Part shown: positions 41,713 to 60,997 of the stretch, in pieces
How the letters are laid out: the number at the start of each line of letters is the position of its first letter
Numbering within the stretch: the first letter of the stretch is position 1
From: Paramacrobiotus metropolitanus
Taxonomy: Eukaryota > Tardigrada > Eutardigrada > Parachela > Macrobiotidae
Assembly (NCBI RefSeq): GCF_019649055.1
Contig: NW_026570280.1
Span: forward strand, 372,001 to 436,000
Length of the DNA stretch: 64,000 bases
Direction: 5' to 3'
The notes under the pieces: generated by a model
What the model was told of the DNA's origin: nothing
The model's input: the letters and a program-made list of their open reading frames with translations, nothing else
Databases searched by the model: none
Program-made: the position numbers and the translations under genes

Positions 41713-42795
41713 ATCGCTCATGCTTATGTATGCGACAACCAATTTGCAAAATTTGCCGACGCACACATAAGCATGAACAATTTTACAATAGTCATCCACG
41801 CCAAGCCCGGTAATTGCGGACCATCTCCGGCATCTTACGGGCCATTCCGGGTATCTTGCGGTTTAACAGCGGGAGCAGGTCGACGCTGAGCATATAGGCT
41901 TGGATCCACTTTAAAGTACAATAAGCTTTCTAAAATTGCTTACGGTATGAAAGAAAATGCACGGAGCGGTGAACTGCTGTTAACAGAGTGAGTCAGCGGT
42001 GGGCCACTACGAATTAACACTTACCAGTCCCACAGTGGTTGGCAGGTTGGGAGATCATCACGATATGCGTAATATGGGAATCCGGTAACAGTTTTCTTCG
42101 TAAAAGGCTTGGTCTGTTCACAAGCTCGGAAGGAAGGTACGCTGCTATTTCCCTGTATCAACAAGCATCCAGTGTAAACACAGTCATGTTTGTATGCATG
42201 TAAGGTGCACTTGACAGTTGAAGTCAATGGATTCCGGGAAGCAATGGCTTCGTCAGCTAATCGGGAAACAACACTAATGTGTATCCGATAGACAGCTACA
42301 AGCGCCTACTGCGTTTGTTGAGAAAAAGAAGCCGTCTGTTTGATCAGCATCAGTGTTAACTAATACGCGGCATGATGTGCACCAAAGGCCACGGCGAAAC
42401 GGTTATGGACACAGACGCGCTAAAGCGAAAAATCAATAAGCATTTTGAGAATCTTCCACGAAAACTGGCTAAACTGAGGACATAATGGCGAAAATGTTGT
42501 TAAAACAACAAAAATCAAAACGTTGATTAACGGATCCACAATTTGTATTTTCACAGTAATTTGTGATCAAAAATTTTTTGGTTGTCGTATGTAATACATA
42601 CCGTGTGTTACTGGCAGTGACAGTCCTCATCATGGAAGTGCCAAAATTTAACAATACCTGCCCAACCTTAAACATTACAGTTAGAGTTTCCTTTAAATTC
42701 GTTTTCTTTGCTTTATTTACCAGTACAATTCTTCCCCAACCGCAAATGTTCGTATTATACTGTATTTCAGCGCTCAGTGAATTTTTATAAACGGG
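41713..42795. other. Intergenic before LTR retrotransposon
   Basis: GCATGAACAATTTT-type AT-rich DNA. Several 60-110-codon frames near 42469-42813 lack recognised motifs. Confidence 0.45.
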
Positions 42796-43025
42796 TGTGA
42801 GACGAGGGCTCACTAGCGTTCACGCTCGTAGCGCTAGGCGCTACGCCTTTGGATTATGGTCTGTGTTGTGTCTCGCTCTGATTGGCTTGTGTTTTGTTAG
42901 TGGGCGCGGCTTAGCACGCGCTGCACAGTGATGCACAGTGTGGAATTGGCTCCACGTTTTACGATCGAGCTGCGCCGATCAGTGTTGATTTTCTGTTATG
43001 CAGACTTGTCAATATTATTAAAGTT
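42796..43025 (+). repeat. 5' LTR
   Basis: It begins TGTGAGACGAGGGCTCACTA and contains the hairpin GTAGCGCTAGGCGCTAC (7-bp stem) near 42830. It ends ATTATTAAAGTT. I see no canonical AATAAA or TATA box in it. Confidence 0.9.
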
Positions 43026-43029
43026 TAGA

Positions 43030-43040
43030 TGGTAGCAGAG
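43030..43040 (+). promoter_or_regulatory. Primer binding site, initiator tRNA-Met type
   Basis: TGGTAGCAGAG lies four bases after the LTR and is complementary to the 3' end (CTCTGCTACCA) of animal initiator tRNA-Met over 11 bases. The match stops there. Confidence 0.75.
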
Positions 43041-43706
43041 CCGACAGCGGTTCTCTGAATTGATTTGATTTGATTTGCGTCAGGCATACTTGGCCTGTTA
43101 TCGGACGTGTTTCTGTGACCAGTAAGGCACAGGTCGGTGTGACAGCAAAGCGCACACCACAAGCGGTGAAATCTCCTCCATCAGACGTGGATTTCCAGCT
43201 TTGGTTTTCGGTACAGTGTCTTCAGCGAAGACCTGTGCTGTTTCCTAGCTGTGCAAGAGTTCAAGAGTTTCAGTTGGCAGTGTTCCTCGGTACGGAGTCT
43301 TCAGCGAAGACCCGTGCTGGTGTCACTGTTACTCGGCAAGGCTTCAGCGAAGCCTAAGCCGTGGGCCACAAGCGGCGAAGCGCCAAAGGGGCGCACGGGA
43401 CAAGATCAGCTCAGACTCCACCAAACTGGAGTAGAGCATTACTGTTGCTACGGCACAGCCGGCACAGTATCAGACTAATAGCGCGAGGCACGCTACGGAA
43501 CAGCGGCGACGCGCGAACGGATTTGGAGAAGAATTGGATAATCTGGATCATTTTGCCCGCGGAACGGACGGTGAACAGGTAGAAAAACGTTATTAATTAC
43601 GGGATTGGTTAGACGGTAAAATCGTCAATTTTCATTGGTCCGTACTGAGCTGAGCATAGACGTAGGCGGAGTTTTGCACACGGTGCGCATGTCTGGTCGT
43701 TGACCG

Positions 43707-43727
43707 TGACGTCAGGCAGATATAAAA
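43707..43727 (+). promoter_or_regulatory. CRE plus TATA box in the leader (candidate internal promoter)
   Basis: The perfect palindrome TGACGTCA (43707-43714) is followed six bases later by TATAAAA (43721-43727). The pair lies 700 bp inside the element and ahead of the octamer array and first ORF. CREB/ATF-family factors bind this palindrome. Promoter use is inference from arrangement. Confidence 0.5.
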
Positions 43728-43904
43728 TCTAAGTGGACTAACGCTATTGGTCAGTTATCTGAGCTGTGATTGGTTGAAATTTGAACCGAGTAAATTGAGC
43801 TAGCGGACCAATCAGAACGAAGTAAACAACCCGAATGGGGATTTTCCGTTGAACTTGAGTCGTTATTGGAAAATTTGATTGAGATGAGATAATTGAGCGG
43901 AAAG

Positions 43905-44375
43905 TGACCTTTAACTTAAAATTTAGTTGAGAAGCGACCTTTTGAGTTAAAACAAAGGAAAAATGACCTTTGATTGAATTGAGCTCGAAAGTGACTTTTA
44001 ACTTGAAATCGAATTGGAAAGTGACCTTTAAGTTGAAATTGAGCTGGAAAGTGACCTTTTAAAAGCAGAATGAGTTCGAAAGTGACCTTTTAACAGAAGT
44101 TGAGCTGGAAAGTTACCTTTTGAGCTGAGTTGAGTTTGAAAGTGACCTTTAAGATCTACAAGTGACCAACAGTGACCTTTATCGAAGCGAAATTGAATTG
44201 CGTAATAGTACAGCGATATCAGCAGCTGTAGGAAATTGTCCGTAAACGTTGTAAAAGCGGTTTTGAAGTTTTGTCTGGAAAAGTGACCTTTAGGGCAAAT
44301 CTCTCGAACTTTTTATCGAAAAAGTGACCTTTAACAGGGCCTTAGAAAGATTTTCGAAAACACAAAGTGACCTTT
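43905..44375 (+). promoter_or_regulatory. Leader array of TGACCTTT octamers
   Basis: Ten exact TGACCTTT octamers lie near 43907, 43964, 44022, 44052, 44083, 44143, 44173, 44284, 44324 and 44369, all in the same orientation. One-base variants (CGACCTTT, TGACTTTT, TTACCTTT) lie between them. Many sit in a longer phrase, GAAAGTGACCTTTAA, with spacings of about 30-60 bp. The complement AAAGGTCA is the NBRE half-site of NR4A nuclear receptors. No ORF covers this stretch. Confidence 0.7.
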
Positions 44376-44450
44376 AGGTCAACTAAATAAACCATACAAT
44401 AACGTGTGTGTGAGAACATTTGGCAGGAGCGTCCAAGTTATCCGATCAAC

Positions 44451-45172
44451 ATGGATAAAAATAAGGAACAACCGACGTCTACTGGCAGCCAGGGAAGCAC
44501 AAGCTCCCGTAGCTCACAGCAAGGCGCACCAAATCCGTACAAAAAAGACCTGCACACATACTCACGTCCAGTCGGACATGAGCGGAACACTCGAGCGCCC
44601 AAAGCATTCGAGAAGAAAGATTCGCGAGGCTCTGATAGCACTTATCAGAAGGCGCTCGAGGCGGTCGCTAACCAGGAAGGTTCCAGTGACGACCAGAAGC
44701 ACACTCCCGCGTCTGCGGCGGGAAGTGAACCGATGAACCAGACAAAGGTCACTGGGGAGGATCGATCCACAGAAAAAGGAGCGGAAGCAGTCGGAACATC
44801 ACAGTTGGATGTTACCGCTGCCAGAAACGATGAGCAGGATAAAGATGTGAACCTGGCTCAAACAGATATTAGAAACACAAAGGTCACCGCAGAAGAACTG
44901 GCTGAATTGGGACTGGATGACCTTTCATTGAACGATAAGACTGCAGGCGATGACCTTTGGGCAACTCAATGGTCTCGGATGAATCAAATGAATCATACTT
45001 CACGGATGATGAAGCGACGATGAATATGTCCTTCCAGACTGCGATGAAAGAAGCTGACCGTGCTGAAGGTATGACACCATTCAAAGACATACCGGAACAC
45101 CTTATCGAACGGACACAAACGGGAAAGGCCATCAATGTACGACCGCCGTCACCGAGCAGTCCCACGTCAACC
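44451..45172 (+). pseudogene. Retrotransposon ORF1, low-complexity N-terminal region
   Basis: It begins with ATG at 44451 (MDKNKEQPTSTGSQGSTSSR). The composition is polar, rich in Ser, Thr, Gln, Lys and Glu, without recognised domains. It contains octamer-encoded peptides (TKVTGE, DDLSLN, DDLWAT). A frame change around 44950-44960 moves from the ATG frame to the frame that continues as SDESNESYFTDDEA up to a TAG at 45173-45175. The second frame is the one that runs on into the coiled-coil region, so this is probably the N-terminus of one long precursor. It is likely disordered; its function is unknown. Confidence 0.55.
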
Positions 45173-45175
45173 TAG

Positions 45176-46549
45176 AAGAAACGTGTCAGTGAATTGGAAA
45201 ATGAACTTGAAACTAACGAACGTCAGGCGGACAAGCGGAAACAGGAATACCGAGAAAGACTGACGGCACTTGAGACACGTCTCTTCGATCTGGAACAGCA
45301 ACAGGATGACCTTCAAAGTGCTGCAGACGGTTGGAAAGTCAAATATGAAAGACAGAAAGAATTGGCAGATGAATATCTGAAAATGGTAGATGACAGAGAA
45401 ATGGAAGGTCATCTTGCGGTCAGTGACCTTAACGAAAGCATGTCCGAAGAAACCGCCGAAAGGTCACGGCACTTGGCAGAATTGAAAGACGAATGTGACT
45501 TACTGAAACGAAAGGTCACCGAAGCGGAAGCCAAAAGAGATGAATATGCGACTAAGCTCACCGATGCCACCCAGCGGTTACTAACGAATACCAATGAAGT
45601 ATTCAAGCTCAGGAACGACCTGAAACTACGAGATGAGAATATCGGAATTCTTCAAAAGGAATCGAAAGGTCATCAGAGAAGAGCTGATGAAGCCGTTCAG
45701 GCGGCTAAAGATCTGAGGGACCTTACAGCCACCGAATGCGCGAGGCTGAAGAACGAAATAAGACAAGTGATGGAAGAAAACAAGATGCTGAAAGATGATA
45801 TCGGAAAGGTCACCGAGGAACATAAAGAGTTGAAAGAAACCGCCAAGATCATGACCGAACGAGGTTTGAATTGGGAGCGGGAAGCACGCCGATTGGACGT
45901 GCTGGTCACAGCGCTCGAAAGGAAAGATAAAGAATGGCAACAAGCAGTTCATCAGAAGACACAGGAGATTATCAAGCTCAACACGGAGCTGATTGATATG
46001 ACCCAAACAGTGATGACAAGAGAAGACGAGGTTACCCAAACGAAAGACCAGCTAAAAGCGGCAGCTGAAGAATACATGAAGCTGGAAAGAGATGTTACCC
46101 AGTTGGCGGAACATATCAAAAAGGTGAAGAACAATACCGATAAGGTCATCCAAGAGAAAACGTTCCAACTCCACCAGCACATGTTACAGGTCAAGGAGGA
46201 GAATTAGAATTTGAAGACGGAAAAAGAGGAATACCAGTTGAAAGTCCGACGCTTTGAAGATGAGAATAGGGCGCTTAATATGTCTAATAAGCACAAAGAC
46301 GAACAGCTTCTGCAATACGGAGCCAAGACAGCAACGGTGGAATCGCCCCCGCCCAGTTACAGTAACGCACAGGAAACGGGCACGGGCAAAAGCTTCCACT
46401 TCGAAATGCCACTACGAACTGGCACCGGCAGAGGAAATGTCAAAACGGAGCAGGACGGTGAAAAGGTCAAAGACGAAAGAAACCACCATCAGGTTATTCA
46501 CACTCGAGCCGAGGTGAACCTTCACAATTTCCCTCACACATTAAAGTGA
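45176..46549 (+). pseudogene. Retrotransposon coiled-coil region upstream of Gag
   Basis: About 450 codons in one frame are interrupted by TAG at 46205-46207 (after QVKEEN). The sequence is a near-continuous predicted coiled coil: VSELENELETNERQADKRKQ, LETRLFDLEQQQDDLQSA, then repeated charged heptads (ERSRHLAELKDECDLLKRKV and onward). The last part turns Ser/Pro/Gly-rich and ends with TGA at 46547-46549. The Gag frame starts one base out of phase there. A coiled coil this long before Gag is unusual for gypsy elements; self-assembly of particles is a plausible role. Coding octamers are read here as ERS, KVT and KGH in different places. Confidence 0.7.
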
Positions 46550-47418
46550 ACGCGTTCATCGACGAAGGGCGACAGGACAGACCTCCCAGTCGGCAGGAAC
46601 GCCCAAGGAAGTCCCGCTACGCTAAGCCGAGACGAAACCAAAACGATGACGACAGTAATGAAGAGGAAGAGGATCCGAGAGGAGGATTCACACTGGCAAA
46701 AGCACTTAACTCCATGGCTCGGAAAACGCCACTCGTGACCTTTGACGGCAGCCGTGACACCGTCAATGGTTGGACAAGATTGGTGAAAGAAACCCAGGAT
46801 ACCTACCAGCTTACTGATAAGCAAGTAATGATTGAAATAGCCAGCGCAGTGAAAGGGCCGGCCAAAGGCTGGTTTGAAGGAGAAAAAGATATAGCAGCAG
46901 AGGACGGAATCGAATACACGGTAAAAGAATGGATGGATAAATTCAAAGACGAATATGGTGACCGAGATGAAGAAGTCTTAGGCTTACGTGAGGCCTATGC
47001 AAGGAAATTCGAACTTGGAAAAGAATCGCTCGACCAGTATTACCAGGCAATGATGCGGTTCAAAGCAATGGCGGCTCAAGCGAGACCAGCACCCCAGAAT
47101 GTAGCCCCACCGAATATGGGAGCACCACAACAGCCAGTTAACTTCGGCGGAAATGGAAATTGGAATGGAGGTCAAGGAAACTTCCAGAATCAAGGACAAG
47201 GTCAAGGTCAAGGCAACTTTCAGCCAAATAGAGGAAACCAGAACTTCCAGCAGAATCGAGGGTCACGAACAGAATTCAAGTTTCAAATGATCGACGGATG
47301 GGTGGCGAATAACGTGCAGATGTGCCAATACTGTATGTATGGCAATCACCAGACACAGGGGTGTAAGTTCGCCAACACACCTCCGGAACAGAATCCGAAC
47401 CTGTTTGCCTTCAGAGAA
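46546..47418 (+). pseudogene. gag: Gag: capsid-like domain and CCHC zinc knuckle
   Basis: The capsid-like part holds LVTFDGSRDTVNGWTRLVKE, then VKGPAKGWFEGE, VKEWMDKFKDEYGD and LGKESLDQYYQAMMRFKAMA. This is the retrotransposon Gag pattern of helices with a conserved W and YY/F. It is followed by a Pro/Gly/Asn/Gln linker and one knuckle, CQYCMYGNHQTQGC (C-x2-C-x4-H-x4-C), which binds element RNA. The frame ends at TAG 47419-47421, and the same frame resumes into the RGG tail. No ATG sits at its 5' edge, which fits translation as part of a longer precursor with the coiled-coil region after frame repair or frameshifting. Confidence 0.85.
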
Positions 47419-47421
47419 TAG

Positions 47422-47847
47422 CAACGATTGCGCGGCCTGGGCGGCTGGCGCCAAGCGGTGGCAAACGGATACGACCTAATTGCCCAATGGTATCAAGCGA
47501 AAGCCAATTTCCAAAACCAGCAAGGCAATGGAAACGGAAATAACGGGAATGGAAATGGCGGTGGCCAAAATGGCGGCTTCGGCCGTGGTGGCTACGGCCG
47601 CGGCGGTTTCAGAGGAAGAGGCAGAGGCTACGGCCGCGGAAATTGGAATGGTGGCAACCGAGGCGGTGGAAATGGAGGCGGCCAAGGAAACTACCAACAG
47701 GGTGGTGGCCAATATAATAACGGCGGCGGACAACAACAAGGCAACGTTCAAGGAAATGCAAATGGACAACAACAAGGCAACGTTCAAGACAATGTGCAAG
47801 GCGCGCAACAAGGTGGGGTGCCGGTTCAGGGAAACGGGCAAGATCAG
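47422..47847 (+). pseudogene. Gag C-terminal RGG and Gly/Asn/Gln-rich tail
   Basis: It is in the same frame as Gag beyond the TAG at 47419. It reads LRGLGGWRQAVANGYDLIAQ, then a pure Gly/Asn stretch, then RGG boxes (GRGGYGRGGFRGRGRGYGRG) and Gln/Gly/Asn repeats (GQQQGNVQ). RGG boxes bind RNA and G-quadruplexes and promote condensation in other proteins. Such a long prion-like tail on an LTR-element Gag is uncommon. It ends at TAG 47848-47850. Confidence 0.7.
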
Positions 47848-47859
47848 TAGGCGCCGGTG

Positions 47860-49400
47860 AGCCTACTGATCGCCCCGACCCTAAACCACCGGATAAAAGG
47901 GGAACGGAAAGGTCACCACCGCAGAATGGTACTGCAGTGAAAGTGACCAATGCAACGGCTATAAGGATGCCGTCAGCGCAAAAAGGAAATGGACCGGCTA
48001 TACGGATGCCGCAACCACAGGAAACGGCTATATGAATGCCGTCACAGCAAGATGAGATGACTATATGGATGTCATCATTGCGAAAGGAAATTGAAGCGGC
48101 TATAAGGATGCCGTCACAACAGCAGAATCAAAGGTCACCGCAGAATGGTACTGCGAGTGGAAATTGTCAGCAAACAAAGTGTAATTGCGCACCAGAAGAA
48201 GTGGACGATGAGCAACATGCGAAATTCCGAAAATATTTGGCAGAGAAGGAGCCACGTTGCAACTGTCGCGTAACGGAGACAGGATATACGGAAACAGACA
48301 TCCGACCCAGATTCTGCGGTTGCTCGGAAGATAAAGACTTAAAGCAGAATACCACTGATGACAGTAAAGACGAAAGGTCACCTTCCGTAGGAGAAGTCCA
48401 AGTGAAAGGTCAAGGAGCGAGTGCGAACGCTAAAGGTTATGGTGGAAGCACCGTGTTTAAAGGTCAAGAAATAAACTAGACACTACGAACAGCGCAGCAA
48501 AGGAATAGCGAAATGGCACAAAACTCCGATGACTCACTTGTGGATGCATTAACGCTGCAACGGAAGGAAATATGGCGAAAAATGGCCTACAGACCGAATG
48601 GGAATCACGGGATGTGGATACCCGTGACACCGAAAGCGAAACAAAAAGGTGAAATGTCACAAGAAGATTACTGGGACATGCAACAGTTACGCACACAAAG
48701 CGAAAGGAAAAGATGAGAAGAGTTGGTTACCGGGAAACCAGCAGTATTCAACGCAACCGAATACAAGAATGCGCAGGCTGACCTTAATAACCCGCGAAAT
48801 GCACCGCCAAAGGACAAACCGCTAAATTATGGTGAAAAAGTTCCCATACAAAAGTCGACAAATGGCGGATTTGTCATCAAGCGCAATGAAAGGTCACAGG
48901 ACTTAGCGCAAAATGAACAAAAAGGATGGTCAAAAGAGACAGCACAAACGCAACAGTGCAGTAGTGCAGTTGAAAGGTCATGGGACTTATCACAAGCACT
49001 GCACAGAGATGCCAGTAATAAGTCACCAGCCCGAACAGACGGAATGTCTTCGCAAACTGATCCGATGAAAACGAACAATGAAGTGTCAGCAAAAGTGATT
49101 GAATGGATGACCCAAAAGGGATATGACATGGTCACATATGAAAGGTCACCGGACAGCGAAGAAGATGATCTGAAGAAAGCTGACCAGATAACAAGTGAAG
49201 TCATTGGGAAGTTGCGAGACAAAAGGAAAGATGAACACAAAGAAGAAGCGCTGTACCAGACGATAACTGAAGTGACTAAAGGTCATATGACCAGCACAAA
49301 AGCAAATGAGCAAGTGCAGAATGCTGGAAAGGTCACAAGTGGTAAAAGGGCTACAGAGAAGCAACTAGACCGGCAAAAGCCACGGGAATTTTACGATGTT
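47860..49400 (+). pseudogene. Linker region between Gag and protease, Cys-containing
   Basis: A third frame carries a repeated AI(R/W)MPS peptide (ATAIRMPSAQ; AAIRMPSQQ) and then a small Cys cluster (QTKCNCAPEE, PRCNCRV, RFCGCSED). Long acidic low-complexity sequence rich in octamer-derived ERSQDL, ERSWDL, ERSPDS, TKGHMTS and GKVTSG follows. In-frame stops are TGA 48033-48035, TAG 48477-48479, TGA 48714-48716 and TGA 49401-49403. The frame is otherwise continuous into the protease. Each stop can be reached from CGA or CAG by one C-to-T change. No enzymatic domain is recognised. Confidence 0.55.
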
Positions 49401-49403
49401 TGA

Positions 49404-51030
49404 ACCGATGTGCCACACAGGATTGATAAGTTGAGCGAAATACTAAAAGGTCATAGTACTTCAACAAAAGGACAAATGCTTCCCGATACGGATCCGGGGC
49501 CAGTATCGCTCATCCCTGTGAAATGTAAGGTTCATACACTGAAGATTCAAAACGGAAAATTGCCCAAACGAATTGAAGCGTACACTCACGAAGTGAAGGT
49601 GGGAGATATAAAGGTCAACGCGATGCTGGATACCAGCGCCGAGACGTCGCTGATCAGCAAACCGTTCTGTGAGAAAAATGGAATTCATATGCTCCCATTG
49701 CCACCAGACAGACTGGTGAGGATAAATGGAATTAGCGGAACGTCGGGATTTATGGTGACACACTACTGTGTGGCACCAGTAACCTTGAGGGAAAAGACTA
49801 GCGAACATTCCTTCTACGTCCGACCGAAGTGTGACGACGTACAGGTCTTACTGGGATTCGACTTCTTAGAGAAGAAGTTCGTACTGATGGATAACGAAGG
49901 CGAAGAAGAGACAGAGGATGACCCGAAACCAGTTGCTAAAGTACAAGTCGGAAAGGTCACCGCACGTGTAAAACAAACGGGGAATGTTCAAACGGACAAT
50001 GAAACGCTAATCCCAGTACCAGAGGCACAGGAAAAAGAAAAGGAAAAAGCATTGTCAACATCGGAACAGTTGAAAGCGATTCAGCAGGAGATTGAAAACA
50101 TGTTAAATCGAACACTGCTGACACAAAAGGGAAGAGAAAAGGTCATCCTAGTACCAGAGGCACCGGGAATGACAAAAGTGCAGCAGAATGTGAAAGTGCA
50201 GCAGCAAGCAATTATCCAAGTACCAGAGGCACTGGAAACGAAAAATGAAAATGGAAATGTTGAAAAAGTTATCCCAGTACCAGAGGCACTGGGCAAAGAA
50301 AATGAAAGGTCACCAATGACAGACACTGTGAACTTAGTACCAGAGCCGGATCCGAAAAACGCCAATATGACCTTTTTCGAACCACGCCCTGCTACGATAA
50401 ATAAAAGGGAAATAAAGAGAAAGTTATCCCAGTACCAGAGGCACTGGAAAAGGAAATTCAAAGGTCAACGGTACCAGAGCGCACTTCGAATCTTTTCGAA
50501 CTACGATCTGCTACCCAAAACGAAAGGTCAACGGATAAAACCAAAGACGACGCAACAGAACGTGATTCTAAAAAGGAACCCTTTTTCGAACCACACTCTG
50601 CTATCAACGAAGAAAGGTCACCAACGCTTCAAGAGATAGCTGCCACACAGAAAGAAGCGACAGCTGCAGCGAAACAATCGCTCGTGCCTGGCTTGGAGTG
50701 GGCAAAGCCTATCCCAGTACCAGAGGCACTGGGAATAAAGACGGCTAAAGTGTGGAAGGATAAAAAGAGTGAAAGGTTACGAATATTGAAACGGATAACC
50801 GAAGAAGAACAGATGTTTACGAGCGAGATCCGCAACAAGGCGCTCGAGCAGTTAAAAGGTCACAAGACAGGCAAACAACCAGAGGTCATCGAAATATCCT
50901 CTGAGGACAAGAGCGTGACCCCAATCGAATACGAACAGGATGTTACAGCACAGGAGGACGTCAATCCGCAAATGAGTCGAGAGACATTAACTCCAGAAGA
51001 ACGAGCTGGGAGTTGTCACCTACGGTTACT
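49404..51030 (+). pseudogene. pol: Aspartic protease domain plus VPEALG repeat region
   Basis: The protease core holds VNAMLDTSAETSLISK (active-site loop) and VLLGFDFLEKKFVLMD (the ILG-type second motif), as in retropepsins that cut Gag-Pol. The usual D-T/S-G-A is D-T-S-A here, with Gly replaced by Ser through a single base (GGC to AGC), so activity is doubtful. Downstream are six to eight VPEAL(G/E) peptides from the DNA word GTACCAGAGGCACTGG (near 50011, 50153, 50218, 50278, 50337, 50430, 50712) and three FFEPR-type words (near 50373, 50486, 50582). A frameshift lies at about 50395-50425. Coding resumes in another frame to about 51000. Confidence 0.75.
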
Positions 51031-53190
51031 ATGAGTATCCGTGTAGGATACAACCTCAAAGAGAATGTGCTGAATGCCGCGAGAATGCATCTCAAGATGA
51101 CCTTTCGGAATGGCCGAAATGTAACGCCGCAATAGCGGACCTCAAAGGTCACGTTCAAAAGGAAGTTAAAAGTATTATACGGACAAATGAAATGTGGAAA
51201 CCACACATCGAACGATATCATTGTAACAGATATCGGACCTGGTTGTCATGCGTCAAAAACTTCATCATTGGAAGAGGAAGATGGCTAAACCATTGGCTAC
51301 ATCGGGTTGAAAACGGAATCCAAGATCCTCTTGATCCAGTATTAACTGAACGAAGATTTGAAAGAGAGATAGAGGAGATGAACGAAGAAGGAGAACTCTG
51401 GGAGGAAGCAAGAGTTGACCTTTTCTGGGATTTCCGTGTGAATCACATGTATAAAGGTCAAGGGAAAACGATTATTTTCCTAGCAGGACTTGGCACGCCA
51501 GTATACGAATCACTCCAAGTGTATTACGACGCACTAAAGAGGGAAACGAAAAAGCATTCGAAAAATACTGGAAGAAATTTGAAGAAGAAATTCCCAGATT
51601 TGATGTAAACGAGATGAGGGAATTGCAAGTAACCCGGAAAAGAAGATTACCGGGATTGACGGAAAAGAAAAAGGTGACCTTTGCACCAGACCCTGATGGA
51701 GTGGACTACCCAGAACGAGGTGGCGACACGTGGTGCATGTATGAGACTAAGCCAGGTGATGACTGGGTCACCGAAGAATTAATGGCAAATTGCGTCTTCG
51801 TTGGTCCCAAACGACCCAAAGGTTACGAAACGGTCCAACAGAACGAAGCTGATAAAGAGACGGTAAAAGCAGCAGAAAAAGAGGAAACGGCTAAGGATAC
51901 AGTTGAAGGAGGATCGAATGAGACAGAAGAATCACATACGTCTGCTTTTAACATCGCAAAGATGTTAACAGATAGAGGCGAAATGTGGAGAAAATTTAAA
52001 GAGGAAGTGGAAAGAATATCGAATGAGCAGCAAATCCCAGTAACTGAGACAAAAAACGGGGAAAGGTCACTCGATAACGGTGAGGAATGTCCGCCGGTCG
52101 AGTTGACCGAAAAGCCATTAATGAGCCTTGAAGAAATTGATGAACAGGAAAAGTCAAATCAAGAGGAGCAGAGGTCAAACTCTGATCAGTCGGAAAGGTC
52201 ATCAACAAGAATACAAGTAGCAAGGAGCCACCCGAGAATCGCGGCACGAAATGGAAGAAAAGCAAAGGAAGCGGACAAACCTCTGCTCAAAAATTTAAAA
52301 GCGAAAAAACTCAGCGATTCACGGGAAAATGAAAGTGACCTTTCATCAGAAGATGAAGGAGTTGACGAACGCCCACTTGAAAAAGCTGACAAAGGTCGAG
52401 CTACTGCACAAGAATACGAGAGTAGTGATTCGGACTCGGAATGGACGAGCTCAAGTGATAATTCAACGACTTCTGAAGATTCAGGCGTAAGTGACCTTTC
52501 AAAGCAAGAGGACTTACTGGACCTGGATGAAGATGACGAAGTGGACGAAGAAAAAGAAAAAGAGATAAAAGTCAGAAGATTGAAAGTAGAAAAAGCTAGA
52601 CTTTCGAAAGATGTGATTAAAGTCTACCGTGATCAACGAATCAAATTGAAACCGTCAAATTGCACACGCGTAAAGGTCAAGATGGGAAAATATGCACCGA
52701 CTCAAAACAAGTTGATGTTCACACCGGTCCCACAAATCGAAACCGACGTGCAACCGTTAGCAGGAGTGACGGACCACAGAGGAAAATACTTCGAAATCGT
52801 CATTGCGAATCACAGCAGCAAATACCGAATTGTAAAGAAAAATCAGCTCCTCGGATACGTTGAACCGTACGAACATATGGAAAATGTAAAGGTCAACGCT
52901 GGGACAGTAAAAAATGTAGTTGAAGACCCAGAGGTGGATGATACAACGAAAGCTGAAAAGACAAAGATAATTGGGAATTTGAAACTAGGACCTGACCTAA
53001 CTGAAGAACAGAAAAATGACGTGTATAACGCGTTTTGGGAATTCTGGAAGGTCCTACCGACATCAAAGAAACCGTATGGAGATGTGAAAGAAGTTACTCA
53101 CGTGATCGATACGGGAGACGCGAAACCAGTTAAATGTAACCCGGCCAGAACGAGTTGGACAGGCCGCGAGTTTATAACAAAGCATATCTG
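51031..53190 (+). pseudogene. Pre-RT region: Cys motif, charged linker, start of RT
   Basis: After a frame change near 51000 the sequence reads GVVTYGYYEYPCRIQPQREC with further Cys residues (AECRENAS, WPKCNAA). A basic/aromatic block follows (WLSCVKNFIIGRGRWLNHWL). Another shift near 51545 leads to a 500-codon Glu/Ser/Lys-rich linker. At the end comes a beta-rich block (KYFEIVIANHSSKYRIVKKN, QLLGYVEP), typical of the segment between protease and RT in gypsy elements. The frame ends with VTHVIDTGDAKPVKCNPART, the beginning of RT, before a frameshift near 53184. Confidence 0.65.
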
Positions 53191-54420
53191 GCACAAGATG
53201 TAATTGAGCCGTCAGACGCCGAATGGAGTTTCCCAGTTGTGTTAGATATGAAAAAAAATGGCGATGGGACAATGGGAACGAGATTTTGTGTCAATTACAT
53301 CATGCTGAATAAGCTAACGAGAAAAAACAATTACCCGCTACCGAATCCAGATGAGTTGCTCGACGCGTGCGCAGGCAACAAATATTATGGAAAAATGGAT
53401 CTACAAAGTGGATTCTGGCAGATTCCAATGGACCCGGCGTCAATCAATAAGACGACCTTTGTAACGCTAGATGGAATGTACCGGTTCAAAAGAATGCCAT
53501 TTGGAGTTTGCAACGGACCAGCAACATTTCAATTATGCATGGATAAAGTATTGTCGAAAGCGAAAAGAAAAGGTTGTGTTTTCGGGTACATTGACGACGT
53601 TATCTTCGCTGGAAAAACGTGGGCGATCTTCATGCAGAATTTGAGAAACGTTCTAATGAGCCTCGTTGAAGCGGGATTTAGAATAAAGCCAACGAAATGC
53701 GAATTCGGAATGAGACAAATGGGATTCCTCGGTCACATACTCAGTGAAGACGGAATCAGAATGGATCCGGAAAAGGTCACCGCGGTCTCAGAATTCAAAC
53801 GGCCTCAAACAGAAAGGCAGTTAAGGTCATTCCTTGGACTGGCGAATTATTATCGCAAGTTCATTATGGGATATGCTCAGAAAACGTGTCATTTGTACGA
53901 GCTGTTGAGACAGGATAAACAAGTAAAGAAAGACTGGACAAAAGTATATGAGGACAAATTCAACAGTCTGAAACAATTGTTATGCGAAGGCCCGGTATTG
54001 GCGAAATTTGACCCGACAAAACCGACCGTAATTGAATGTGACGCGAGTAAAGAGGGAATCGGAGCTGTCTTATCACAAGAAGGTCATCCGATCGCGTACG
54101 CCAGTCGCGTCTTACATGGAGCAGAAAGAAATTACGGCGTAACGGAATGTGAATGTCTTGCAGTGGTGTTCGCTGTCAGAAAATTCAAGCCATTCATCGA
54201 TTATGCGGAATTTACCGTACGAACGGATCATAGGCACTGACCAACTTGTTAAGGTCAGAGACGAATAAAGTCGGCATGAACCCGCGCTTGACAAGATGGG
54301 CGATGGCACTGCAAGGTCACCAGTTTAAAATTGAATACAAACCGGGAAAGTATTGTGACAACGCAGATGCACTATCAAGAGCACAAATTGAAGGTCCAAC
54401 ATGTCAAGAAGAAGAATTTG
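53191..54420 (+). pseudogene. pol: Reverse transcriptase and RNase H
   Basis: The RT blocks are in order: AQDVIEPSDAEWSFPVV, RFCVNYIMLNKLT, KMDLQSGFWQIPM (first catalytic Asp), FKRMPFGVCNGPATFQ, GYIDDVIFA (YIDD catalytic pair), GFLGHILSEDGI and RSFLGLANYYRKFI. RNase H follows with IECDASKEGIGAVLSQ (Asp), TECECLAVVFAVRKF (Glu) and VRTDHR (Asp). A one-base loss near 54236 stops the frame at 54238-54240. The remainder (RLTRWAMALQGHQFKIEY, NADALSRA) follows in the next frame. The motifs place it in the Ty3/gypsy group. Catalytic residues are intact, but the frameshift would prevent a complete polyprotein. Confidence 0.92.
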
Positions 54421-56470
54421 ACGAGATTCCGAATTTCGAGGATTATAAGAAAGAATTTGATACAAAAGAACCGGCAATTAAAATTGGACAGCTGTTCCTA
54501 CAGATGGTGGAACAACGCGAAAAACGTCTAAAGGTCACCTCAGCTACGGCGAAAGAGTCGGCTGAATCAGAAGTGAAGGTGAACCGTGTAAAAAGTTGGC
54601 TGCCCGCCGTTAGTGACCTGAAGGTCACCGGACTTGAAGCGGGATCTGAAATTCAAAACGGAAAGGTCACCGGACTCGATGAAGCAGTGGAAAATAAAGA
54701 TGACCTTTGGGAAACGGACAAAGTAGCACAAGCACTGAACGAGTGTCCTATAAAGCTGTTGCGATTCCCGAAACAGATGAAAAGAAGTACAAACCGCTAC
54801 CACGCTGTAAGGTCATTAAAGATTGGAACGAACTCAGTACGGCGACAGTCCGCATTGTCAACCTGCAAGGGGTTGAAGAAGACGAAGACGACACAAACTT
54901 GCAGTTGCGAAATAAACAATTGAAGGATCCCCATTTGGCAATGATAATCGACGAATTGGAACACCTACCAGATGCGGAAACGAGATCGAAATTTGAAGTT
55001 CATTACCAGTTGTGGAATGGCATATTATACCGAGTAAAGGATAAAAACGGGAGACTTGAAAGGTCATATGTGGTACCGTTGTCAATGCAAAGAGCGATAA
55101 TCCACGCATTGCACGACGAGAAAGCGGCAGGCCATTTGAGATTTGAAAAGACTCTGTCAGCAATAAGACTTCGTTACTATTGGGACAGAATGAGTACTGA
55201 TGTGAAGAATTACATACTCGCTTGCCAAGGATGCCAATTTTAAAAGATACCGAGAAAATGCCCACCCGGAAAACTGCAAGAGATAAAAGTCGGACCTCCA
55301 TTCTTCCGGGTCTACGCGGACTTGAAAAGACCGCTGTTGCCAACGAAGAAACGCGGATATAAGTACATAGCAGTATTCATCGATCAGCTGACCAAATATG
55401 TGATAGCAGTACCGATGAAGACGGCAACAGCTAAAGAGTTCGCGAAAGTGTTCGTAAAGCACGTGATATTGGTACACGGAGCACCGCACATTCTACATAC
55501 TGATCGCGGACGACACTTTACAGCTGAAGTATTGGCAAAGGTCACCAACGTGTTCAAGATTAAACACACGTTTGGAACGGCATATCACCCAGAAGGTCAA
55601 GGCCAAGTTGAGAGACAGATGCAAACGATCGCAGATGGCTTGGCGCAGTATCTGAAAGCGGGAAATGAAAGGAAGTTCAGCAAATATCTCCCATATGTTA
55701 TTTCAGCCATGAACCGAGTCGTACACGCTACAACCGGATACTCAGCATATTATATGTTGCACGGCAGAGAAATGACAATGCCGGAAGATGTGGTCACAAA
55801 AACTAATATACCCGACGACTATGGGTCCCCAGATGAATGGGTAGAGACCATGAAAAAGAATTTGACCTTTGCAGAAGAAGTGGCCAAATGCAATATAAAA
55901 GATGCTTACAAAAAGAATGCGGAGATTTATAATAAGAGGAAGTCGGAACCGAACTTTAAAGTGGGCGACTTTGTACTGATACGTCTACCAAAGGATACGA
56001 AACAAGGAAAGAAAGAAAATCAGTCGGACTTCAAGTCGAAATACGATAAAGTATGGAAGATTCTCAGTTTCCCGCGAGCAAACGAAGCAGAGGTCATTGA
56101 GCAGAACCCAAAGAAAGAAGCGGATTTGAAAGTGGTCTCGATTGATCGCGTGAAACCATGGCACCCTCCGTTGCCGGATGAGAAGAAGGAAACAGTAGAC
56201 AGAGTAACAGAGCGTACTCAAAAAGATTCGGATAAATCTTTTTTCGAACCACGCTCTCTGCTGCCCGACACAAGTGGAGATAAACCTAAGAAGAAGAGAG
56301 GAAGACCAAGGAAAGAGGATAAAGACTTTGAAACTGCAGTAACCAAAAGGTCGAACGCAGAAGCCGGAAATCTGGCAGAAAAGTCATTGGAACAAGATAT
56401 AGAAGCACCAGAGCGTAATTCCAAAAAGGACTTGCAACAACCTTTTTTGAACCACGCACTGCTACTGGAC
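54421..56470 (+). pseudogene. pol: Linker and integrase
   Basis: An acidic linker with two near-identical KVTGLEAGSE/KVTGLDEAVE octamer-coded peptides precedes a frameshift near 54735. The integrase zinc domain has HALHDEKAAGHLRFEKTL, then RYYWDRMSTDV and CQGCQF (HHCC). An in-frame TAA at 55241-55243 follows; the same frame continues through the DDE core: VYADL and FIDQLTKY, then HTDRGRHFT, then HPEGQGQVERQ. A C-terminal GPY/F-like module follows (GDFVLIRLPKD; YDKVWKIL; DRVKPWHPPL). TAA could come from CAA by one C-to-T change. Further on are basic KKKRGRPRKE (an AT-hook-like GRPRK) and FFEPR words near 56240 and 56441. Confidence 0.88.
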
Positions 56471-56484
56471 AAACTGATGACCTT

Positions 56485-57963
56485 TTGAAACAGCGGACCG
56501 GCGCTGAGATAACAGAGCGCGATTCTAGTTTTTTCGAACCACGCACTGCTACGATGAATGAGAGTGACCTCATACAAAAGAGAAAGGAGGAAATAGAAGC
56601 GGTCAAATCGAAAGCTGAACAGTTGGGCCGCGACATAGCGAAAGCAATAGATGAACAAAAGGTCAAACAGAAGAAAAAGAAACCAACTCCTACAGAGTTG
56701 TTGACTCAGGAAGGTGAAGATGAAGATGCTGCCGACAAAGAACTTCCTGATCGGATAACTAAAGGACGCAGAGATATTAATCCGAAAAATTAGATTAAGG
56801 GAGGATTAAGGGAGTTTACGATATTGGAAAAGAAGTGGAAAGGTCACCAAACTGAAAACTGTCGAGTCAAAAGGTCATCGAAACGGACGTCAAAAGGTCA
56901 TCATAGATGAAAACTCAACAGAAAGGTCATCCTGTCAAAAGGTCATCAGACTCGGACTGAATCATACGAGAGAAGCGAAAGGTTATCGAAAGGTCGAGAT
57001 ACTCCGACCGAAATTCAAATGGAACAACGAAAAGGTCACGAAAGTCCGGAATCTTCAGAAATTGTCGACCAGTCGAAAGGTCATCGGACTCTGACTGAAG
57101 TACAAAATGAAGTGCAAACGTCGATCGAAGTAAAAGCGGAAGAAGTGAAAGAGGACAATCGAAAGGGTAAGAGACTCCGGCAAAAATCCAAATGGAACAG
57201 CCAAAAGGTCACGAAAGATCTGGATCAGCAAAAATGGAAGGTCATCAGACGAGGTTGGGAAGCCGGATCACCGAAAACCATAAGGTCAAGCGACTCATTA
57301 ACCAATGGTTAAGCGCAAATGAACTTAAAGGTCAAATGTCAGATGAACCAAGTGTCAAGTGAAAGGTCAAACGACAGACCGACTGAAGGTCACGGGACTT
57401 TCACACAAAAGACGAACAGCCTAAAGGGCTAGAGACGTCTCGAACCGTGGAGAAGAAAGCGCAACCTAAAGGTCAAGAGAGTTCCGTGTCTACGGAACAA
57501 CCGAAAGGTCACGAAACTTTGTAAGAAGGTGGGAAAAAAAAGGTCATGCTTCCCATGGAAAAAGCGGCAGTAGATGCAGAAGCGGACTCCGCGCGACAGG
57601 TGGTTCAAAAATCGTTGTTTACACTGTTGAAAGAGACTTCAGCGACGGAGAAACCGAAAGGTCGAGAGATTCCACTGACGACCGAGAAATCAAAAGGTCA
57701 CGAGACTAAGCCGCAAAAAGAGAAGAGTGACGAACCGAAATCGACTCAGTCTTCGTCCGGATCATTGGCGAGATAGACAATCGATGAGAAACAGAGTCTG
57801 GAAACCGAACTAACGGACTCGGCATTCCCCCAGAAACCGGATACGTGCGGTACACCAGCGAAATGAAAAATGCTGCCAGAGCACAACAAAATGCGTGGAG
57901 AATGGTCATAACTGATGCGACATTGGATAATATGTCGAACAAATGGAACGACATGACCTTTTG
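56485..57963 (+). pseudogene. 3' low-complexity coding tail, octamer-dense
   Basis: Lys/Glu-rich short frames (SSFFEPRTATMNESDLIQKR; EQRKGHESPESSEIV; ERSHE-type words) are separated by stops. A one-base loss in the FFEPR word near 56442 caused the preceding frameshift: that copy reads TTTTTTGAACCACG where the others have TTTTTTCGAACCACG. Within 56838-57700 exact AAAGGTCA octamers occur every 20-60 bp, about fourteen of them, all in this orientation. The last frame ends LGIPPETGYVRYTSEMKNAA and later NKWNDMTF at 57963. No domain is recognised. Confidence 0.55.
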
Positions 57964-59348
57964 AGAAGCAAAGCTTTCAACTTCGAACTGGAAGAACTTT
58001 GTACTCGAATAATGGCGAACAGATCAGAAACAGTTGAATGTTAATTGGTTATCGCTGGAGAACTGGTGTAAACGTCAAAAACGTGAAAGGTCACCATGTG
58101 AGAACGAGCTTAATAATGCAACGTGAATGGTCATCACGTTAAAGTACTAAAAAGGTCATTAGAAGTTACTATGAGGGTTAAGTATACAGGTCACGTAACA
58201 TATCATTGAAACTGTATGCGTGTATTTATTGTTTTCAGCGTTTATAGAACAGAATCAGAAAGGATAAAAAAATCATGTGGAGCATCTATTGGGGTTAAAA
58301 TTGATTCGGTCTACAAAGCCGGCCAAAAGGGAGTAGTTACGGCAGTTAGCCGGCTCTCATGCTTAAGCGACTCACTGTTACAAATCGGCAAGAGAAATAA
58401 CGGTAATCAAGCCGGATCTCTCGTACGGAAGCTGGGCCACAAGCGGCGAAGAAGAGTAAAAGATTTAATGTGGAAGCGTTATGGGGTAAATTTAATGCGG
58501 TAGCTAGCCGGCCCCATCAGACATGTTACGGTAAACTCAGCCGGCACTCTGGCCGCTCGAGGCATATTGAAGTTGGATGTGCGACGGAAAGGTCAACTTG
58601 AAAGTTTACTAGGGAGGCAAGCGAAGAAGTGCTTGAAAGTCGGCAAAAATCGGCTAAGTTCCTCCATGACCTTTAGTGGAAATTTGAAGTGAAGATGGAT
58701 GACCTTTGGAATCACTATTACCCAACAGAGTCATCATATTGGACTTCAAGTCGCATGACCTTTCGGGACCATTAACCCAAAACGAGTCGCACATCTCAAC
58801 GGATCATCTCAACAAAGGATGACCTTTATCAGGGAGGAAGCGAACTACGCTTGTCTACATGATGTCCCTCCATGACCTTAATTGGATCTCATTTTGAAGT
58901 CGTACAATTGATACGCACCATATTCCAAAGATTAAAGCAGTATTCCTAAGTCGTTCTTGATACGCACCTGATTCTCAAAGCGGATTGTGATGAAAAGTCG
59001 CATTACGGATGCGCGGACTTGCTCAACAGAGCGGAATGGGCCAAAGAGCGGAAAACGGTGGACGGGACCTGTGACCTTTACGAGTCAGAAATGGAGGATC
59101 CTAGTCTACATTTGATTATAACTTTTGTTGATCTGTTTAACTGTTGATCTGTTTTTGTATTACAAGTGATATGGAATAGTATTTTGATACAGATCTCTTT
59201 ATTTCACATTGTGCATTTGGATTTATGTGATAAAATGGAATAAGAGAATTTGATGTTTTGAGCACACACAGACACCGGCGACCGTCGTCTTTTCGTGGAT
59301 TCGGGAGCGTGTCCAGCCTCAACGGAGCTCGGCATCCCCCCAGAGGCA
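57964..59348 (+). other. 3' untranslated region of the retrotransposon
   Basis: The orientation of the octamer switches here. AAAGGTCA lies near 58086, 58152 and 58587. TGACCTTT lies near 58668, 58700, 58756, 58820 and 59071, several inside a TCCATGACCTT or GGATGACCTTT phrase. GCCGGC-rich short repeats fill 58310-58560. The 18-base word GGGCCACAAGCGGCGAAG is shared exactly with the leader (43363-43380 and 58436-58453). ELGIPPEA-coding DNA just before the 3' LTR echoes 57819-57840. No clear polypurine tract abuts the LTR. Confidence 0.6.
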
Positions 59349-59576
59349 TGTGAGACGAGGGCTCACTAGCGTTCACGCTCGTAGCGCTAGGCGTTACGCC
59401 TTTGGATTATGGTCTGTGTTGTGTCTCGCTCTGATTGGCTTGTTTTGTTAGTGAGCGCGGCTTAGCACGCGCTGCACAGTGATGCACAGTGTGGAATTGG
59501 CTCGACGTTTTACGATCGAGCTGCGCCGATCAGTGTTGATTTTCTGTTATGCAGACTTGTCAATATTATTAAAGTT
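59349..59576 (+). repeat. 3' LTR
   Basis: 228 bp. It differs from the 5' LTR by C to T in GGCG(C/T)TACG, loss of GT in GGCTTGTGTTTTG, G to A in TTAGTG(G/A)GCG and C to G in GGCTC(C/G)ACG. That is about 1.3 percent substitution, so the insertion is relatively young. Confidence 0.9.
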
Positions 59577-60997
59577 AGCAATTAGCGGTGCGACGTTTTG
59601 TGTTTCCGCATAGATCGCAATCCAGATCGCATTGCTCGCTCCACAGGATTCATCCCGTTTGAGTCTCTGTCTCTGGATCCATTCTGGATCTAGCTTTAGA
59701 CGGGGATCTAAACGGGGACTTTTTTCCAATTTGTAATAAATACTGTACGTATTCACTTTACTGTAAATAAATATTAAATTTATTATGATTTGGCGTTAAA
59801 AGAAAACCAACGACTGAAAATAAGCAGCGTACTCCGAGACAGTGATAGAATCCTATGCAGCAAACAAATCTGGAATTAATAAGAAGAATGGCTTTCGTGG
59901 ATAAAGTTTAGAGGCGCCGAGACGTCACGTTAACTGCACAGACAAATAGCTGTGTAATCAGCAAGACGAATCTCGCCATCCGTCTTGTTGTAAGAAATCT
60001 CTGTTAATTTGTCGCATCAGTTTGCTGCTCGTCTGATTAATCGGTCGTGAGCACGGGGGAAATGTAGGTCATCTACAGCTGTCCAGCGGAGGATCCAGTG
60101 GCGAGGGAGAACCAGAACAGCATTAATTGTTCGCTTTGCTGTAGAACAGACACACGCTGGCCTGCTCGCCTCTGCTTTTAACACATTAGTGTGACCATAG
60201 TGTGTGACTTCGGCGCACGCGAGATTTCTGTCTTTTGAGGCAATGAGCTGAAATCACTTTACAATAGCGAATTTTAGATTTCACAAAACAAGTTACGTGC
60301 AGTTCGACGTTCGGATAGAAGTTGGCGTTACGGGTTGATTTACGTCCGTTCGCGACGTAAGGCGCCGTAACCCAACGTCGTTGGCTGACGCGTAAAAACT
60401 ATCTGCCTTACGTGGACCTGTGCAACGGCTCAGCCATAAGGCTGAGCAATAAGCCAGCGTATGCTGCCTGTGGATCTTTTTTGTGTGCTCTAACCGCCTC
60501 CCCGAGAGCAGGTTGGTCACGCTCTCGGCACTCTCGATTCGATTTATTTTTTAGCTGCACGTCACTGCAAGTGTGCATCCGTACAAGCATTTTAAACGAT
60601 TTTCAGTCTGCTAACGTACTGTTTATGTGACGCGGTAGTTTCTAGTGGACGGAGCCTAAACCATGTGAAATCTAAAATTCCCTAATGTTTTAACTAATAC
60701 GTACATTATCGCTGCTCAAAGGTCGCTGTTAATATTTCCATATCGCGCTGGCAGTATTCTCTTGAGACCGGATTTTCGCCGACACATTATCAAGTAAGAC
60801 TGATGATTCTGGTCGCAAATTGCCGGAACAGAGTATTTTTTAGGGACATTAATTTTATTCGTCAAAATACAACCTCTCCCACATTTACATGTAAAAACTG
60901 ACAGTCAACATTAATGCGCTCAATTTTAACAAACTCTTTCTTGTCGGAATTTTGGGGGAACAATCTTGGCGGTTTTATCATGTTCGCTACGTTTAGG
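59577..60997. other. Intergenic upstream of SNAP copy F
   Basis: I see no conserved gene. A 72-codon plus frame and overlapping minus frames at 60293-60630 are unrecognised. The sequence just before copy F carries TTCGCTACGTTTAG, an acceptor-like end, right before G+ATG. Confidence 0.45.

What the first reader, a model, noticed from the sequence alone, without database searches (positions are those of the whole stretch)
43905..59080. LTR retrotransposon saturated with the octamer AAAGGTCA/TGACCTTT
By hand I count about 80 exact octamers (both strands) in about 15.2 kb. Chance under equal base use would give about 0.5 (2 x 15200 / 65536). They fill the leader, all ORFs and the trailer. AAAGGTCA is the known NBRE site bound by NR4A-type orphan nuclear receptors as monomers, and its core is the half-site of ROR, ERR and FTZ-F1 types. 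The element may have turned itself into one long receptor- or insulator-binding array, comparable in principle to the Su(Hw) array in Drosophila gypsy but spread over the whole element. An RNA packaging tag or a host-silencing target are alternatives.
Basis: partly seen in the sequence, partly recalled or inferred. Interest (0 to 1): 0.88.

Follow-up and report, generated by a model that had tools for sequence, protein, structure and literature searches.

The report
Tardigrade retrotransposon filled with receptor-type sites
A virus-like jumping gene in a water bear carries more than eighty copies of one eight-letter DNA word, spread over its genes and non-coding parts alike, and related copies keep those words almost unchanged while the letters around them drift, which points to the word being a working binding site for a host protein that the jumping gene uses throughout its body.

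Summary
A Ty3/gypsy element (42796-59703) of the tardigrade Paramacrobiotus metropolitanus holds 83 exact AAAGGTCA octamers (55 +, 28 -). About 1-2 are expected from base composition. Codon-preserving shuffles of its coding segments give about 4 where 51 are seen, and the octamers fall in all three codon frames. In 28 other copies, 12 window octamers are kept in 93% of cells against 32% for other 8-mers. Third codon positions inside octamers are 99% identical, against 70% outside.

The octamer is also the most over-represented non-simple 8-mer in 83 kb of host sequence outside the element, with a similar following-base rule (C, T or A, rarely G). Part of that excess sits in other repeats. So the element has multiplied a site that the host genome also carries widely. 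Enrichment on both strands favours a double-stranded DNA site over an RNA tag. The site equals the NR4A/HR38 NBRE, and the host has an HR38/NR4A-type domain. TCAAGGTCA (FTZ-F1/ERR type) is not enriched. Binding and function are unproven. A leader array resembles gypsy's Su(Hw) array, but extending it through all ORFs appears new. One related clade has far fewer sites.

The parts
42796..43029 (+). 5' LTR, shorter than the 3' LTR by about 120 bp near its 3' end; no octamer
   Evidence: repeat with 59349-59576, 97.8%; other copies have a ~355 bp LTR matching 59349-59703
43030..43041 (+). primer-binding-site-like sequence directly after the LTR; likeness to the initiator-Met tRNA 3' end is recalled, not tested
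   Evidence: sequence; LTR end by comparison with other copies
43905..44375 (-). leader array: 10 octamers, all TGACCTTT on +, successive spacings 59, 58, 30, 31, 60, 30, 111, 41, 43; the array is present with variable unit number in the 7 other leaders examined
44403..48479 (+). gag-side region of several stop-to-stop segments (this copy is broken by stops and frameshifts); 15 octamers, 12 on + and 3 on -
   Evidence: conservation of 7 octamers in 7 copies
49404..50639 (+). segment with gag-type aspartyl protease; 9 octamers, 8 on + and 1 on -
   Evidence: Pfam PF13975 E 1.2e-7
51614..53203 (+). coding segment before RT, 7 octamers, 4 on + and 3 on -
53140..54240 (+). reverse transcriptase and RNase H segment
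   Evidence: PF00078, PF17919, PF17917; best solved match Ty3 RT 4ol8, E 7.8e-55
54704..55243 (+). integrase zinc-binding (H2C2) segment
   Evidence: PF17921 E 3e-18
55244..56488 (+). integrase core segment
   Evidence: PF00665 E 2e-12
56839..57700 (+). dense downstream cluster: 14 octamers, all on +
58667..59079 (-). trailer cluster: 5 octamers, all TGACCTTT on +
59349..59703 (+). 3' LTR, flanked on the right by CGGG, which also precedes the 5' LTR (candidate 4-bp target duplication); no octamer

Best explanation
The octamers are binding sites, in double-stranded DNA, for a host protein that recognises AAAGGTCA followed by C, T or A. The host genome carries tens of thousands of copies of this word, and this Ty3/gypsy lineage has collected them over its whole internal body. 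Shown: the excess, a conservation peak over the 8 bases, selection against change in coding sequence in several codon frames and both orientations, and the same motif enriched in the host genome outside the element. Its recruitment along leader and body keeps the provirus transcribable (a distributed enhancer and anti-silencing array), so that copies with more sites leave more progeny. Rough weights: dsDNA-binding site under selection 0.85; reader is HR38/NR4A 0.45; effect is activating or chromatin-opening 0.45.
For: Counts and nulls. Conservation: 12 window octamers in 51.65-55.7 kb kept in 93.4% of cells of 28 other copies, against 32.2% for 3,763 control 8-mers; best of 20,000 random sets 69%; third codon positions 0.987 (34 positions) against 0.704 (1,275). 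Gag side: 41 of 49 cells against 1,911 of 8,170 for controls. Column identity is highest at the 8 bases (0.968-0.995; flanking columns 0.777-0.957; all columns 0.885). Base after the octamer: 0 G of 83 in the window element; 2 G of 400 cells; 0 G of 39 sites outside the window element. Host motif: 26 in 82.8 kb against a mean of 2.9 for 840 same-composition octamers, next highest 15; 42,562 genome-wide against 15,522 for the reversed word. HR38/NR4A domain exons with P-box CEGCKG at C45:296815-297648. FTZ-F1/ERR-type TCAAGGTCA not enriched. Enrichment on both strands argues for duplex DNA.
Against: No binding, expression or chromatin data. A related clade that includes copies with long open frames (up to 2,828 aa) has few octamers (0-1.0 per kb in eight 3-kb-class loci), so the dense array is not needed for the family to persist; it is still enriched there (23 against 1.6 expected in 38.7 kb pooled). 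The LTRs, where the promoter should be, have none. Part of the host excess lies in other repeats, and G still follows 4,042 of 42,562 octamers genome-wide. I made no search for the NR4A base preference after the octamer, so the no-G rule neither confirms nor excludes HR38. The host has 42 reported zf-C4 proteins (PMC12941274, passages), and other readers of AAAGGTCA are possible.
Confidence: 0.5

Rival explanations
1. Insulator or architectural array: the sites bind a host boundary protein, shielding the provirus from surrounding heterochromatin or tethering it in the nucleus, as the Su(Hw) array of Drosophila gypsy does, but extended over the whole element.
For: Leader array with steps of about 30 bp, like gypsy's 12 sites in 340 bp of 5' UTR, and host sites mostly single, the same contrast as for Su(Hw) (PMC2374998, passages). 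Genome-wide host enrichment suits an architectural protein.
Against: No assay. That 19 of 20 host sites had no other octamer within the 800-bp stretch rests on sites that I picked outside visible clusters. Sites in every ORF are not needed for a boundary. No Su(Hw)-consensus site is in the window.
Confidence: 0.25
2. RNA-level signal: AAAGGUCA (or UGACCUUU) in the genomic RNA is bound by Gag or a host RNA-binding protein for packaging, export or stability.
For: Sites lie all along the internal body and not in the LTRs; + orientation is commoner (55 against 28).
Against: Both orientations are enriched (about 80-fold on +, 155-fold on -, against first-order Markov), and - sites are conserved too (52336 in 29, 52492 in 28, 54701 in 25 of 29 copies). 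The + bias (2:1) is less than base composition alone would give (3.8:1). The same motif is enriched in host DNA.
Confidence: 0.1
3. A mutational or copying process (for example short duplications, or repair that favours the word) creates octamers without selection.
For: The leader array looks grown by duplication of about 30-bp units. Two other repeat families in the window also carry the octamer in each copy compared.
Against: Octamer flanks in the element show no common unit outside the leader (base counts). At 15 sites common to most copies, 30 of 34 non-carrier cells show a single-base change, 2 a double change and 2 gaps. Third positions are nearly frozen only inside octamers.
Confidence: 0.05
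4. Host-silencing target: the host uses the word to recognise and repress the element.
For: A related clade has few sites, as an escape would look.
Against: The octamer-rich clades are numerous, with long open frames, and keep the sites against drift; a target for repression should be lost.
Confidence: 0.05
5. Protein-level cause: the octamer encodes a favoured short peptide.
For: Some frames repeat KVT, KGH or RS.
Against: All + frames and both strands are used; codon shuffles that keep the protein lose the octamers; leader and trailer hold them too.
Confidence: 0.01

Closest known systems
Drosophila gypsy retrotransposon with its Su(Hw) insulator
   Same: Ty3/gypsy-type element with an array of host-factor sites in the leader; host genome carries the same site mostly singly (PMC2374998, passages)
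   Different: Here the word also fills the coding regions and the trailer (83 in all), and it is a nuclear-receptor-type half-site; no Su(Hw)-consensus match in the window; insulator action untested
NBRE (AAAGGTCA), monomer site of NR4A receptors (Nur77, Nurr1, HR38)
   Same: Identical octamer (PMC4777543, passages); host has an NR4A-type domain
   Different: No binding test; a strong rule against G after the octamer, whose presence in NR4A sites I did not look up
Ty3 of yeast and metazoan Ty3/gypsy elements
   Same: Protease, RT, RNase H, H2C2 and integrase core in that order; RT matches Ty3 RT 4ol8
   Different: About 16.9 kb long; other copies have open frames up to 3,124 aa around RT; the best 120 of 2,592 protein matches are 37-47% identical over the RT segment (which sees only proteins of 0.55 to 1.75 times the query length, so not whole polyproteins)
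PATC sequences of C. elegans (recalled, no call)
   Same: A dispersed DNA signal that marks sequence for expression
   Different: PATCs are A/T phasing in non-coding DNA; here it is one exact octamer, also in coding DNA

Membership tests
Ty3/gypsy LTR retrotransposon (Metaviridae) | Long terminal repeats with a short target duplication | tested here: met
   LTRs 42796-43029 and 59349-59703, about 98% identical over the shared part; CGGG on both sides
Ty3/gypsy LTR retrotransposon (Metaviridae) | Domain order protease, RT, RNase H, integrase | tested here: met
   Pfam matches in that order; RT best match Ty3
Ty3/gypsy LTR retrotransposon (Metaviridae) | tRNA primer binding site next to the 5' LTR | tested here: inconclusive
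   TGGTAGCAGAGC at 43030; tRNA match recalled only
NR4A/HR38 response element (NBRE) array | Exact AAAGGTCA | tested here: met
   83 exact copies, conservation peak over the 8 bases
NR4A/HR38 response element (NBRE) array | Host encodes an NR4A receptor | tested here: met
   Two exons of an NR4A-type DNA-binding domain; the rest of the gene was not looked at
NR4A/HR38 response element (NBRE) array | Receptor binds the sites in the host | not testable with these tools
   needs DAP-seq, CUT&RUN or EMSA
gypsy-type insulator | Tight cluster of host-factor sites in the 5' leader | tested here: met
   10 octamers in 43905-44375; arrays also in 7 of 7 other leaders examined; that the word is a host-factor site is inferred
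gypsy-type insulator | Su(Hw) consensus sites | tested here: not met
   YRYTGCATAYYY, the gypsy consensus quoted in PMC2374998: 0 exact matches in the window
gypsy-type insulator | Enhancer blocking | not testable with these tools
   needs reporter assays

The most novel reading that the evidence does not exclude
AAAGGTCAH is a genome-wide 'self' or licensing mark of this tardigrade, read by a host DNA-binding protein to keep chromatin expressible. A retrotransposon lineage passes as self by writing the mark into all of its internal sequence, coding regions included, under selection in every reading frame, while a related clade took another route and let most marks decay.
Probability: 0.15. 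Interest if true: 0.92.

Novelty: new variant of a known kind. Interest (0 to 1): 0.78.

Why it matters
Mobile elements that borrow host factor sites are known, but (recalled) usually in an LTR or leader. Here selection holds one 8-bp DNA word against drift inside the genes of an element, overriding codon choice in all frames, in a large family of copies. That gives a natural, well-replicated experiment on what a dense array of one site does for an element: rich and poor clades can be compared in one genome. It also exposes a strong, apparently undescribed genome-wide motif in a tardigrade (no paper in the held library pairs 'tardigrade' with AAAGGTCA), which could name a major regulator in an animal phylum with little regulatory knowledge.

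Tried and rejected
Chance and base composition, codon use and a peptide signal were tested and rejected. Duplication of one unit fits the leader array but not the coding octamers, whose flanks differ.

FTZ-F1/ERR sites: TCAAGGTCA is not enriched genome-wide. Su(Hw) consensus: absent from the window. Helical phasing of octamer spacing: no clear period near 10.5 bp. A replacement motif in octamer-poor clades: none comparable; AAAGATCA at one site in 7 of 8 poor loci looks like a decayed octamer.

Of two small pieces fetched, the one from a different gypsy family had 0 octamers in 1.0 kb; the other belonged to the second rich clade. Rfam found nothing in the window at its gathering scores. Papers: searches found no report of such an element; only listings were seen for them. 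(listings) showed nothing on it either.
Full report
WHAT AND WHERE. The window is G000:C60:372001-436000 of a 169.8 Mb, 533-contig genome. A SNAP-family protein at 60914-61996 finds 7 proteins, all on a contig of 930,367 bases, the length of C60; 4 of the 7 carry the name Paramacrobiotus metropolitanus. That tardigrade's published genome is given as 170 Mbp with a longest scaffold of 4.48 M (PMC11191345, passages), and C1 here has 4,484,719 bases. The host is therefore this species. The finding is a Ty3/gypsy element. LTRs lie at 42796-43029 and 59349-59703; the 5' one lacks about 120 bp that other copies have; CGGG flanks both sides. Protease, RT, RNase H and integrase domains come in the usual order, and the RT is closest to Ty3 RT among solved structures. 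This copy is broken by stops and frameshifts. Other copies show open frames up to 3,124 aa around RT.

THE OBSERVATION. AAAGGTCA occurs 83 times in the element, 55 on + and 28 on -. First-order Markov expectation is 0.69 and 0.18, second-order 1.76 in all. In 14 coding segments (kept or trimmed from 20 to avoid overlaps), 51 are seen against about 4 in codon-preserving shuffles, at most 11 in any of 1000. All three + frames are used about equally, and on - only the frame that would create a TGA stop is avoided. The 8-mer stands far above every other; the ten highest all contain or overlap it. One-mismatch neighbours are rare, at most 8 each on both strands together. No octamer lies in either LTR. 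The leader holds 10, all in one orientation, as a degenerate array with steps of about 30 or 60 bp in its first part; the seven other leaders examined, of 40 scored, have the same array with differing unit numbers.

CONSERVATION. The RT protein gave 113 scored matches in the genome (a lower bound; 1,621 first-look candidates). I used the window copy and 28 of the 30 best copies cut as loci (the window itself is one of the 30, and L038 was dropped because its match was broken up). These copies are 84-89% identical to the window over about 4 kb. Twelve window octamers are kept in 93.4% of cells against 32.2% for 3,763 other 8-mers; no random set of 12 in 20,000 draws passed 69.4%. Two more window octamers, at 51675 and 55863, lie at the edges of the fetched stretches with too few aligned copies and were not scored. 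Third codon positions are 98.7% identical inside octamers and 70.4% outside; first and second positions are also higher inside. On the gag side, with 7 other copies, 41 of 49 octamer cells are kept against 1,911 of 8,170 (23%) for controls; one window octamer there could not be scored. Taking 15 sites present in at least 20 of 29 copies, which is a biased choice, identity peaks at the 8 bases (0.968-0.995) against 0.777-0.957 in the flanking columns shown. The following base is C 226, A 103, T 69, G 2; and 30 of 34 non-carrier cells differ by one base. Conservation was not scored for about 45.9-51.6 kb and beyond 55.7 kb.

CLADES. A second clade (85% identical RT protein; L047, L049, L092, and L096) is also rich, 2.9-3.3 per kb in its three RT loci, against 3.0-4.0 per kb in the window clade's 4-kb loci. 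It shares several positions with the window clade (53772, 54620, 54662, 55537, 55863) and has its own (54782, 54981), while 54530 and 55059 are missing there. A third group has few: 0 to 1.0 per kb in L048, L050, L088-L091, L093, L094, and 0 to 1.4 per kb in four upstream pieces. In the span homologous to 53.2-56.2 kb it has 0-1 octamers per locus (8 loci) where four window-clade copies have 6-7. Even so, 38.7 kb of it pooled hold 23 against 1.6 expected. L095 is intermediate (2.33 per kb). Since the two rich clades share positions, the common ancestor most simply had them and the poor clade lost most; in the poor clade one shared site reads AAAGATCA in 7 of 8 loci. The tree is midpoint-rooted and from RT alone. 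The poor clade speaks against a dense array being essential.

THE HOST CARRIES THE SAME MOTIF. In 82.8 kb outside the element (window flanks, eight receptor-gene loci, two arbitrary 5-kb pieces) the octamer occurs 26 times against a mean of 2.9 for its 840 same-composition permutations; the next has 15. By departure from a second-order Markov expectation it is the top 8-mer there apart from TA repeats. Most of these (19 of 26) come from the window itself; the receptor loci and arbitrary pieces hold 7 in 35.6 kb. Part of the excess is repeat-borne: of the 19 window sites, 19516 and 22591 lie in one repeat, and 21517, 24398 and 27813 in another. Genome-wide there are 42,562 against 15,522 for the reversed word. 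I fetched 20 sites from the first 100 listed, avoiding visible clusters. Of these, L073 lies in a relative of the element, L072 and L075 in one repeat, and L086 in a repeat shared with window site 17407; 19 of 20 have no further octamer in 800 bp, and L080 has four. With the window's 19, the following base is C 22, T 11, A 6, G 0 of 39, not all independent, and no other flank position stands out. Genome-wide the rule is weaker: G follows in 4,042 of 42,562 (9.5%), against 2,427 of 15,522 (15.6%) with G before the reversed word. So element and host share one extended motif, AAAGGTCAH. My rough estimate, not a count (about 80 sites in each of some 60 to 80 rich copies), is that the family explains well under half of the genome's octamers.

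READER. AAAGGTCA is the NBRE of NR4A receptors (PMC4777543, passages). The genome has 63 zf-C4 matches, exon by exon; 42 zf-C4 proteins are reported for this species (PMC12941274, passages). Translated loci include domains that I recognise from memory as FTZ-F1 (L053) and ERR (L055, L058), and an NR4A/HR38 domain in two exons with P-box CEGCKG. The FTZ-F1/ERR-type word TCAAGGTCA is not enriched (1,777 against 1,953). HR38 is therefore the leading candidate, not a proven reader.

HOW IT WORKS, MOST LIKELY. Shown: a nucleotide-level constraint on a duplex-type motif in the coding parts compared (gag side, and the stretch before RT to integrase), a leader array kept in all eight leaders seen, and the same motif in the host. 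Inferred: binding by a host factor, most likely HR38/NR4A, along leader and body, which keeps the provirus open and transcribed. The leader array parallels gypsy's 12 Su(Hw) sites in 340 bp, where endogenous sites are single (PMC2374998, passages); the Su(Hw) consensus itself is absent. An insulating role is the main rival. Both-strand enrichment and conservation, and the host motif, weigh against an RNA tag. Conservation weighs against a silencing target.

NOVELTY. Host-factor arrays in a retrotransposon leader are known. A single octamer kept under selection inside coding sequence, in all frames and both strands, is a new variant of that kind as far as searches show (listings only, open-access library).

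Noticed in passing
window 1-42795 and 59704-64000; whole genome: AAAGGTCAH is strongly enriched in the host genome outside the element, in the sample mostly as single sites, with G rarely the next base; a genome-wide tardigrade motif of unknown reader.
   Followed up: partly
window 19516 with 22591; 21517 with 24398 and 27813; 17407 with L086: Other repeats, unlike the element, keep the octamer in each copy compared although the copies are only 70-88% alike.
   Followed up: partly
window 41172-41813 and 60914-61996: A SNAP domain open frame (60914, Pfam) and a similar-looking one by eye (41172) flank the element; a protein search found further SNAP proteins on the same contig, so the element seems to sit in a cluster of SNAP paralogues.
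   Followed up: no
G000:C1:2537724-2538368: Eight AAAGGTCAG words at a regular spacing of 90-91 bp, a tandem array carrying the otherwise rare G.
   Followed up: no
window 49987-50478: Three diverged repeats coding 'VPEA'; words from the same repeat (CCCAGTACCAGAGGCAC) are also among the enriched words in octamer-poor clades.
   Followed up: no
window 39741-40778, minus strand: 345-aa open frame that looks to me like the C-terminal part of a non-LTR retrotransposon reverse transcriptase (impression only); no Pfam match.
   Followed up: no
genome, PF00078 search: Other RT matches in this genome lie in open frames of up to 3,610 aa; very long polyproteins seem common in its elements.
   Followed up: no
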